This document shows positions 55,169-60,276 of a DNA stretch of 64,000 bases, piece by piece. Made by a program: the position numbers and the translations under genes. How positions within the stretch are numbered: the stretch's first letter is position 1; every line of letters starts with the position of its first letter. Location: positions 930,001 to 994,000 of the forward strand of contig NZ_JANRMI010000002.1 of assembly GCF_029531655.1 (NCBI RefSeq), read 5' to 3'. The DNA comes from Bdellovibrio svalbardensis. Lineage in GTDB: Bacteria > Bdellovibrionota > Bdellovibrionia > Bdellovibrionales > Bdellovibrionaceae. The notes under the pieces are model-generated. The model saw only the letters and a program-made list of their open reading frames with translations. It was not told where the DNA came from and did not search any database.

Positions 55169-55939
55169 ATGATTCCTGCCAACTTTAGAAAAATACTGCT
55201 TTTTGTTCTTCTTCAATTTTTAGTCTTTTCAATCAACGCGGAAGAAAAAATAAACTTCTACACGGAAAAAGGAACCGGAGCCTATCTGGATGAAAAAAAT
55301 CATTTAACTGGCTACGCCGTTGAAGTCGTTCGCGAAATGATTCGAAGAGCTGCTACCAAGGATGAGATAGAGCTTGTCCCTTGGGCCAGGGGTTATGAGA
55401 CTGTTCTCACCAAACCCAACACAGCCATTTTCTCCATGATCCGCAATAAAGAGCGCGAACATCTTTTTAAATGGGTCGGGCCTCTGAATCCAACAAAATT
55501 TGTATTTATTGCCCGAAAAGATTCACATTATAAATTCAAATCAGTGGACGACGCGAAGACTGTTAGGAAAATTGGTTGCTATCAGGGCGATGCCAGAGAA
55601 AAGCTGCTCATTGAAAAAGGATTTTCTAATTTGGAATGTATCGCCAAGGAAGTTCCAAATCAGAACAATCTTAAAAAACTAAAATTCACTCGTATCGACT
55701 TATGGATTACCAGTCGAGATGATCTACTGGATACCTGTAAAGAATTAAAATTTGACCCGAATGAATTTGAGGAAGTTCTGCTTCTGGAAGTTGTCTACAC
55801 CAATATTGGTTTTCACATCAGCACATCAGACAGTGTCATCAAAAAATGGCAGAGTACACTCGACCAAATGAAGAGAGATGGCACCTACGTTAAGATTATG
55901 AAGCAATTTAACGTAGATAAATATATGTGGGCTCTTTAA
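55169..55939 (+). CDS. Periplasmic amino-acid-type binding protein (SBP_bac_3), copy 1
   Basis: A 256-residue exported protein: signal peptide (residues 1-24, SINA), then 'INFYTEKGTGAYLDEKNHLT' and 'GYAVEVVREMIRRAATKDE', the typical opening of family 3 solute-binding proteins, and 'FSMIRNKEREHLFKWVGPL'. The two Cys 'KIGCYQGD' and 'NLECIAKE' may pair. No ABC subunits nearby. Its stop overlaps the zinc-ribbon gene (convergent, four bases). A similar protein is at 60324-61172 on the other strand. Confidence 0.82.
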   Translation: MIPANFRKILLFVLLQFLVFSINAEEKINFYTEKGTGAYLDEKNHLTGYAVEVVREMIRRAATKDEIELVPWARGYETVLTKPNTAIFSMIRNKEREHLFKWVGPLNPTKFVFIARKDSHYKFKSVDDAKTVRKIGCYQGDAREKLLIEKGFSNLECIAKEVPNQNNLKKLKFTRIDLWITSRDDLLDTCKELKFDPNEFEEVLLLEVVYTNIGFHISTSDSVIKKWQSTLDQMKRDGTYVKIMKQFNVDKYMWAL

Positions 55940-56235
55940 GTCTTATTTCCTTTAAAAAGAGCTTCCGCGGCCGCCCGAAGGGCTGCAGCTTTATCAATGC
56001 CGCCAGATCCACCTTTACGCGGAGTAAAGAAATCGCAGAAGTTGGCGCGATCTTTTTCACGCACAACATCCGCATTCGTCTCACGACATTCATTATAAAC
56101 TTTAGGATCGTAAAACTCACAGTTCTTACAAACATGCACATCCGCGCGGCACTGCGGACATTCATCCCGTCGCCCCACAATCCCGTTCACTGGAATTTCT
56201 TTGCTGCAGTTAAAACATATGAGTTTTGATTCCAT
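55936..56235 (-). CDS. Zinc-ribbon protein
   Basis: A 99-residue protein. 'ICFNCSKEIP' (C-x2-C) and 'DECPQCRADVHVCKNCEF' (C-x2-C, C-x2-C), then 'NECRETNADV' and 'NFCDFFTPR', together eight Cys in three pairs plus two single residues, typical of zinc ribbon/zinc finger folds. The C-terminus is 'GGIDKAAALRAAAEALFKGN', an amphipathic helix. The family recalls small DNA- or RNA-binding regulators, but no function is assigned. Convergent with the binding protein, with a four-base overlap. Confidence 0.8.
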   Translation of the reverse strand: MESKLICFNCSKEIPVNGIVGRRDECPQCRADVHVCKNCEFYDPKVYNECRETNADVVREKDRANFCDFFTPRKGGSGGIDKAAALRAAAEALFKGNKT

Positions 56236-59284: not shown

Positions 59285-59644
59285 ATGGGTAAGAAAATCT
59301 ACGTTGGAAATCTTTCATACAATGTTGGCGATCAAGAGCTTGGCGAAGTATTCGCTCAGTTCGGAAACGTTGAATCAGCACGTATCGTTATCGATCGTGA
59401 TTCAGGTAGAAGCAAAGGCTTCGCGTTCGTAGAAATGGCTACTGACGATGAAGCTAAAGTAGCTATCGAAAAATTGAATGGTACTGACCTTGCTGGTCGT
59501 AACATGAACGTTTCTGAAGCAAAACCAATGGCTCCACGTGAAGGTGGCGGTCGTGGTGGCTTCGGTGGCGGTGGAAATCGTGGCGGCGGCTTCGGCGGTG
59601 GAAATCGCGGTGGCGGTTCTGGCGGCGGACGTCCTCGTTACTAG
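59285..59644 (+). CDS. RRM-type RNA-binding protein with glycine-rich tail
   Basis: A 119-residue protein. Residues 1-80 are an RNA recognition motif: RNP2 'KIYVGNLSYNV', RNP1 'SKGFAFVEMATDDE'. The tail (about residues 88-119) is Gly/Arg-rich ('GGGRGGFGGGGNRGGG'). This is the layout of bacterial cold-shock-type RNA-binding proteins of cyanobacteria, deltaproteobacteria and others. It binds single-stranded RNA and may act as a chaperone. AGGAGG before the ATG suggests high expression. A 187-base leader (59098-59284) could hold regulatory structure; I see no clear element. Two tandem terminators follow. Confidence 0.94.
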   Translation: MGKKIYVGNLSYNVGDQELGEVFAQFGNVESARIVIDRDSGRSKGFAFVEMATDDEAKVAIEKLNGTDLAGRNMNVSEAKPMAPREGGGRGGFGGGGNRGGGFGGGNRGGGSGGGRPRY

Positions 59645-59672: not shown

Positions 59673-59706
59673 AAAAGGGATCTGAGAAATCAGATCCCTT
59701 TTTTTT
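59673..59706 (+). terminator. Rho-independent terminator after the RRM gene
   Basis: Arms AAAAGGGATCTGA and TCAGATCCCTTTT with a GAAA loop and a T-run. Strong. Confidence 0.95.
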
Positions 59707-59708
59707 AG

Positions 59709-59729
59709 GGAATCTGAGAATCAGATTCC
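59709..59729 (+). terminator. Second stem-loop in tandem
   Basis: Arms GGAATCTGA and TCAGATTCC with a GAA loop, followed by TTTCTTTTT. Sequence resembles the first terminator, as if duplicated. Confidence 0.8.
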
Positions 59730-59790
59730 TTTCTTTTTGCCTCTCATCCATCCTTGAGTTGAAATATCCCCAACAGGGAGATGTCATCTG

Positions 59791-60276
59791 ATGGAAGCAA
59801 CCGAAGCGAACGTTTGGAAGAAGTGTACTATCTGTAAAAAACCGATCAATTTCGGTTCTCGCTATTATGTCTGTAGCGTTTCCACCTGCAATGGCGATCG
59901 CACGGGCTATGTCTTCTGCAGCGTCTCTTGTTTCGATGCTCACCTTCCAGGGGCTCGCCATCGTGATGCGGGGGCAATCGAGAAGATGGCACCCAAAAGC
60001 GCTGAAGCTCCTTCGCGCATTTTAGTGAAACCAACCCCTAGCGCAACAACCACTTCAAAGCCGATGGCACCGCAGGCTCCACAGGAAGTGCTAATCATCG
60101 CTTCCCGACTTAAAGAATTCATTCAGGCGCGTTCTGAGTTCAATACATCCGCTTCCGTGATGGACGTACTTTCTGATCATATCCGAATTGTTTGCGACCG
60201 AGCTATTGACAACGCTCGCGCAGATGGCCGAAAGACTGTCTTGGACCGCGATTTTGATTTTCTAAAAAAAGGATAG
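59791..60276 (+). CDS. Zinc-finger protein with a C-terminal histone fold
   Basis: A 161-residue protein in two parts. Residues 10-60 hold eight potential zinc ligands: C12-x2-C15, C28-x4-C33, C43-x3-C47, H51 and H57, enough for one or two zinc ions. A Pro/Ala/Thr linker (66-98) leads to a histone-fold candidate (99-161): 'VLIIASRLKEFIQARSEF' as helix 1, 'SASVMDVLSDHIRIVCDRAI' with 'DNARADG' as long helix 2, then 'GRKTVLDRDFDFL' (G146, R147, K148, T149, V150, D154), which closely matches the loop-2/helix-3 signature of archaeal histones (A-x-x-A-x-x-x-G-R-K-T-[VI]-x-x-x-D). It may bind DNA, alone or as a dimer. Sits 147 bases after an RRM protein. Histone assignment is by motif. Confidence 0.75.
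   Translation: MEATEANVWKKCTICKKPINFGSRYYVCSVSTCNGDRTGYVFCSVSCFDAHLPGARHRDAGAIEKMAPKSAEAPSRILVKPTPSATTTSKPMAPQAPQEVLIIASRLKEFIQARSEFNTSASVMDVLSDHIRIVCDRAIDNARADGRKTVLDRDFDFLKKG

What the first reader, a model, noticed from the sequence alone, without database searches (positions are those of the whole stretch)
59791..60276. Zinc-finger protein fused to a histone fold
Residues 99-161 match the archaeal/bacterial histone pattern, above all 'GRKTVLDRDF' after a long Ala-rich helix, while residues 10-60 hold eight Cys/His that look like a ZZ or MYND-type zinc finger. Histones in Bdellovibrio are an established discovery (a small single-fold histone is known); a version tethered to a zinc finger is a different architecture that could target the histone to particular partners or DNA. 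Seen: motifs. Known: histone signature and bacterial histones. Inferred: function and dimerisation.
Basis: partly seen in the sequence, partly recalled or inferred. Interest (0 to 1): 0.85.

Follow-up and report, generated by a model that had tools for sequence, protein, structure and literature searches.

The report
ZZ histone: zinc finger plus histone
This Bdellovibrio gene makes a small DNA-packing histone with a zinc finger attached by a flexible tether, a protein family already named "ZZ histones" in 2024 whose purpose is still unknown; here we add that the two halves are also found as separate genes in related bacteria.

Summary
ORF 59791-60276 (+, 161 aa) has an N-terminal eight-ligand zinc finger (C12 C15 C28 C33 C43 C47 H51 H57), a disordered linker, and a C-terminal histone fold (residues 98-161) closest to the solved Bdellovibrio histone HBb (46% identity, rmsd 1.1-1.5 A in an AlphaFold model). 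All eight ligands are invariant in 30 full-length and 68 finger sequences, and 8 of 10 HBb DNA contacts are kept. The architecture is not new: Schwab et al. 2024 named it "ZZ histones", and the B. bacteriovorus HD100 copy is almost certainly Bd3044 (Hocher et al. 2023). By fold the finger is ZZ-like, but weakly so, and Pfam's ZZ model was not listed for it.

Apparently new here: the halves are modular. Related families carry finger-only proteins and stand-alone ZZ-class histones at separate loci, and the histone tree needs at least four fusion/split changes. The linker holds a conserved short motif (RRII/RIIV; 53 of 77 linkers, about 2 in shuffles), with a like motif ending the tailed finger-only proteins.

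Most likely mechanism: a homodimeric, HBb-like DNA binder whose two fingers recruit a protein partner to DNA. DNA binding is well supported by sequence; the partner is inference.

The parts
59791..60276 (+). ZZ-histone gene, 161 aa
   Evidence: ORF; full-length homologues at 46-81% identity; linker dN 0.44-0.56 against finger 0.09-0.19 and histone 0.05-0.17, with dS saturated or above 1.3
59775..59780 (+). AGGGAG, likely ribosome-binding site 10 nt before the ATG
   Evidence: sequence
59815..59988 (+). ZZ-like two-zinc finger, residues 9-66; ligands C12 C15 C28 C33 C43 C47 H51 H57
   Evidence: invariant in 68/68; AlphaFold of the finger alone pLDDT 94; best fold matches are ZZ domains
59989..60081 (+). 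disordered linker, residues 67-97
   Evidence: residues 78-93 have pLDDT below 50; fast-evolving; length 22-82 aa across the family
60016..60033 (+). conserved short linker motif R76-I-L-V-K-P81 (family form RRII/RIIV)
   Evidence: 53 of 77 distinct linkers against mean 2.3, max 9 in shuffles; R76 29/30
60082..60273 (+). alpha3-type histone fold, residues 98-161
   Evidence: helices 104-114, 121-144, 152-155; HBb rmsd 1.1-1.5 A
60229..60252 (+). RKTVLDRD: loop 2 DNA-binding KT and the R147-D154 clamp
   Evidence: R147, T149, D154 invariant; K148 28/30
59673..59731 (+). two tandem intrinsic-terminator hairpins between the upstream RRM gene and this gene, so it is probably transcribed on its own
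   Evidence: fold -33.1 kcal/mol, z -4.84; terminator scan

Best explanation
This is a ZZ histone. Two copies pair through the C-terminal histone fold into an HBb-like dimer that grips the DNA backbone without sequence preference and bends it. Each copy carries, on a 30-residue flexible tether with a conserved RIIV-type motif, a ZZ-like two-zinc finger that binds a protein partner and so brings it to DNA. Shown here at sequence or model level: both domains, conservation of the ligands and of most DNA-contact residues, disorder of the linker. Inferred: dimerisation, DNA bending, zinc occupancy, and protein binding by the finger.
For: Histone half: HBb is the top match by sequence (E 7.5e-12; profile 1.4e-18) and by fold (TM 0.83-0.89 on the target, rmsd 1.1-1.5 A). 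Of the ten DNA-contact residues of HBb (PMC11317129), eight are kept: S9, K10 (as R/K), K12, N22, S24, K52, T53, R57 map to S105, R106, K108, N118, S120, K148, T149, R153, nearly invariant across the family. The RD clamp R147-D154 is invariant. Finger half: eight ligands invariant, confident stand-alone model (pLDDT 94), best fold matches are peptide-binding ZZ domains (p62, KCMF1, BIG, ZZZ3, HERC2). Finger and histone evolve under similar constraint while the linker drifts. The finger also exists as a free protein, in genus g125 without any detectable histone, so it has a job of its own.
Against: No biochemistry of a ZZ histone was found in the papers searched. T8 and K16 of HBb, both DNA contacts, are not kept here (A104, Q112). 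The histone half is less basic than HBb (net 0 against +2). Published data give the HD100 copy low expression, so it is unlikely to be a bulk chromatin protein. The finger-to-ZZ fold matches are weak (Foldseek E 0.13 or worse; VIA Z 5 or less). The partner is unknown.
Confidence: 0.62

Rival explanations
1. The finger binds nucleic acid, not protein, and adds affinity or structure preference to the histone dimer.
For: The finger is basic (net +3 here, family median +4). Some structural neighbours are ribosomal zinc proteins.
Against: The best fold matches are peptide-binding ZZ domains. Free fingers of 69-78 aa exist without a histone, which does not discriminate.
Confidence: 0.2
2. It works mainly by pairing with HBb: a mixed dimer that plants a finger on ordinary HBb chromatin.
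For: HBb is present in the same genome (G000:C1:151975-152148) and in most genomes of the family that carry this gene; the two histone halves are 42% identical.
Against: Alpha2 positions separate the classes sharply: E to R132, mixed to D136, G to A138, as expected if the two types avoid mixing. Schwab et al. state that only 50% of proteomes with a ZZ histone have a second histone.
Confidence: 0.13
3. The histone fold no longer serves DNA but is a dimerisation module, as in TAF-type proteins, for a regulator that acts through its finger.
For: Low expression of the HD100 copy; loss of two HBb DNA contacts; near-neutral histone half.
Against: Eight of ten HBb DNA contacts, including K148-T149 and N118, are nearly invariant; a mere dimeriser would not need them.
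Confidence: 0.1
4. The finger reads tails of other histones, as eukaryotic ZZ domains read histone H3.
For: Fold similarity to ZZZ3 and HERC2 ZZ domains bound to H3.
Against: Schwab et al. report that the pocket residues are not conserved and judge tail reading unlikely; the own HBb has almost no N-terminal tail; g125 genomes have the finger and no detectable histone.
Confidence: 0.04

Closest known systems
ZZ histones (Schwab et al. 2024, PMC11390915; type case D0LYE7 of Haliangium ochraceum)
   Same: N-terminal two-zinc ZZ-like finger (C4 and C2H2), flexible linker, C-terminal bacterial-dimer-like alpha3 histone; found in Bdellovibrionota and Myxococcota
   Different: Nothing that separates it. 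The printed ligand numbers put the sixth Cys 2 residues after the fifth; in all 68 rows here it is 4 after (C43, C47), which I could not check on D0LYE7 itself
Bd3044 of Bdellovibrio bacteriovorus HD100 (Hocher et al. 2023, PMC10627809)
   Same: second, longer, patchily distributed histone of the genus; presumably the orthologue
   Different: its sequence was not in hand, so orthology is inferred from the papers
HBb / Bd0055 (bacterial dimer histone; PDB 8cmp, 8fvx, 9ezz, 9f0e)
   Same: histone fold, RKTxxxxD loop, most DNA contacts
   Different: HBb has no finger; class residues differ at 104, 109, 123, 130, 132, 136, 138, 155; HBb is abundant and present in all 24 genomes of the genus, this gene in 7 of 24
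Eukaryotic ZZ zinc fingers (p62/SQSTM1, KCMF1, ZZZ3, HERC2)
   Same: their two-zinc fold is the nearest solved fold
   Different: ligand spacing here CX2C-X12-CX4C-X9-CX3C-X3-H-X5-H; the second half resembles HIT/MYND fingers (from memory); no significant sequence match

Membership tests
ZZ histone (Schwab 2024) | C-terminal alpha3 histone fold with truncated third helix and RKTxxxxD-type motif | tested here: met
   helix 3 is residues 152-155 in the model; HBb-like fold; motif invariant
ZZ histone (Schwab 2024) | N-terminal finger with two zinc sites, C4 and C2H2 | tested here: met
   six Cys and two His in the published order, invariant in 68 sequences; zinc itself not testable
ZZ histone (Schwab 2024) | finger structurally similar to eukaryotic ZZ domains | tested here: met
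   ZZ domains lead the Foldseek list and are frequent near the top of the VIA list, but weakly: E 0.13 or worse, Z at most 5
ZZ zinc finger, Pfam PF00569 | match to the Pfam sequence model | tested here: inconclusive
   not listed for this protein at E up to 10 nor among the 25 of 29 families shown for 68 members; weak matches go to FCS/MYM, HIT, VATC and DUF7576 models
MYND / HIT / FCS zinc fingers | match to the Pfam models or fold | tested here: inconclusive
   weak hits only: HIT 0.044, FCS 0.043, MYND 0.15; ZMYND8/11 and Bcd1 lower in the fold lists
Bacterial dimer histone (HBb) | single-domain histone of HBb class | tested here: not met
   carries a finger; ZZ-class residues at eight positions; HBb rows form one clade apart (99/99)
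Bacterial dimer histone (HBb) | DNA-contact residues | tested here: met
   8 of 10 kept
Bacterial dimer histone (HBb) | dimerisation and DNA bending | not testable with these tools
   no multimer prediction or assay available
Face-to-face histone | tetramer through R48/N52 | not tested
   no multimer tool; alignment to FtF numbering not made

The most novel reading that the evidence does not exclude
Finger and histone are a two-part system that works either fused, as here, or in trans: in several related families a free finger protein with a C-terminal VILRR motif and a separately encoded free ZZ-class histone are both kept, and the shared short motif is the contact that joins the finger to its partner.
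Probability: 0.2. Interest if true: 0.6.

Novelty: already known. Interest (0 to 1): 0.38.

Why it matters
Bacterial histones have been established for only a few years and HBb is the best-studied one of the dimer type. The ZZ histone is the second histone of the same genus, with a built-in adaptor domain. If it recruits a partner, it would be a simple bacterial example of a chromatin protein that does more than pack DNA. The modular relatives (free finger, free ZZ-class histone) give a natural test of what each half does.

Tried and rejected
Operon context: no neighbour is shared beyond close relatives, and even inside the genus the gene sits at different places, so context gives no function. 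Downstream binding-protein gene as a syntenic partner: no, relatives in 6 of 24 genomes, at other loci. Pfam PF00808 to count histones in whole genomes: useless here, it misses both histones of the window's own genome, so a histone alignment was used instead. Viral library for the finger: no match better than E 0.08. Co-occurrence of free finger and free histone as proof of partnership: not strong, since genus g125 has the finger without a detectable histone and several genomes have a ZZ-class histone without a finger. A tree of 57 columns leaves most forks open, so the direction of fusion or fission is not claimed. A review states that deletion of Bd3044 is lethal (PMC11318664); the passages of the primary paper read here report only failed deletions of bd0055, so I do not rely on it.

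Full report
What is there. The ORF 59791-60276 (+) encodes 161 aa with a plausible ribosome-binding site. It is separated from the upstream RRM-protein gene by two strong tandem terminator hairpins, and the next gene is on the other strand, so it is probably a single-gene transcript.

Histone half. phmmer against solved structures finds HBb of Bdellovibrio bacteriovorus at E 7.5e-12 over residues 99-155; a profile of 26 homologues finds HBb at 1.4e-18, archaeal HTkC at 1.6e-8 and HMfB at 3.4e-3. AlphaFold gives three helices, 104-114, 121-144 and a short 152-155, which overlay HBb at 1.1-1.5 A. By the HBb-DNA work (PMC11317129) the main contacts are T8, S9, K10, K12, K16, N22, S24, K52, T53, R57. 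With an offset of 96 these are A104, S105, R106, K108, Q112, N118, S120, K148, T149, R153 here: eight of ten kept, and nearly invariant in the family. DNA binding is therefore very likely, though untested.

Finger half. C12, C15, C28, C33, C43, C47, H51 and H57 are invariant in every sequence examined. Modelled alone with 68 sequences it reaches pLDDT 94. Foldseek and VIA-align put ZZ domains (p62, KCMF1, BIG, ZZZ3, HERC2, RSC and SAGA subunits) at or near the top, with LIM, MYND, ribosomal and HIT fingers mixed in below. All these matches are weak. By sequence no Pfam zinc-finger model matches convincingly. So 'ZZ-like' is fair at the level of fold; sequence membership of the ZZ family is not shown.

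Known or not. Schwab et al. 2024 (PMC11390915) define exactly this architecture as ZZ histones, note a copy in B. bacteriovorus HD100 with low expression, and point out that the eukaryotic histone-tail pocket is not conserved. Hocher et al. 2023 (PMC10627809) list Bd3044 as the second, longer histone of HD100, present in 37% of Bdellovibrionota genomes. The finding is therefore a member of a published family, in the genus where it was already noted.

Distribution. In the window's genus 7 of 24 species have the gene, while HBb is in all 24. In the phylum sample the finger is in 174 of 369 genomes. It also occurs in Myxococcota and in contigs labelled Pseudomonadota, including the named strain Enhygromyxa salina SWB007. 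Chromosomal context is not conserved.

Modularity, apparently unreported (not found in the papers searched). Several families of the phylum have the finger without the histone. One form is 69-78 aa, little more than the finger (genera g124, g125). Another has a tail of about 50 aa that ends in P-x-V-I-L-R-R or close to it. In genomes with the tailed form a histone is encoded elsewhere in the genome, and most of these histones carry the residues that mark the ZZ class rather than HBb: A104, V123, R132, D136, A138, F155. Other genomes keep the ZZ-class histone with no finger, even in genus g140 whose other species are fused. On a tree of 133 histone domains HBb is one clade (99/99) while 'fused' needs at least four changes on well-supported branches. 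With only 57 columns most forks are unresolved, so I claim repeated change but not its direction.

Linker motif. The linker drifts fast yet 53 of 77 distinct linkers hold [RK][RKITLV][IVLT][IV], usually RRII or RIIV, against a mean of 2.3 and a maximum of 9 in 500 shuffles. The sequences are related, so this is not a probability, and the motif was written after looking at the alignment. Here it is R76-I-L-V-K-P81. The tailed finger-only proteins end in a similar string, and one family member (L097) has it after the histone, which ties it to the finger proteins more than to a position in the chain.

How it most likely works. A homodimer binds and bends DNA as HBb does; two tethered fingers bind a protein partner. 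The histone step rests on conservation and model, the recruiting step on analogy with ZZ domains and on the free-finger relatives. The partner is unknown.

Noticed in passing
L141-L144, L146, L147, L160-L174, L176, L177: Finger-only relatives without histone: a minimal 69-78 aa form and a tailed form ending in P-x-V-I-L-R-R; six g125 genomes with the finger show no histone hit.
   Followed up: partly
L211-L219, L221, L230-L247, L260-L268: Stand-alone ZZ-class histones (R132, D136, A138, F155 signature in most), some in genomes with a separate finger protein, some without any finger.
   Followed up: partly
window 60016-60033 and homologous linkers: Conserved RRII/RIIV motif in an otherwise fast-drifting linker; function unknown.
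   Followed up: partly
window 59673-59731: Two near-identical tandem terminator hairpins after the RRM RNA-binding-protein gene (59285-59644).
   Followed up: yes
window 55936-56235 (-): A second small Cys-rich, zinc-ribbon-like protein (99 aa, MESKLICFNCSKEI...) about 3.6 kb upstream; unrelated to this finger by eye.
   Followed up: no
   Followed up: no
G000:C2 about 995956-998000 (just beyond the window): Adjacent ORFs resembling Ku and LigD, a bacterial end-joining pair; assigned by eye only.
   Followed up: no
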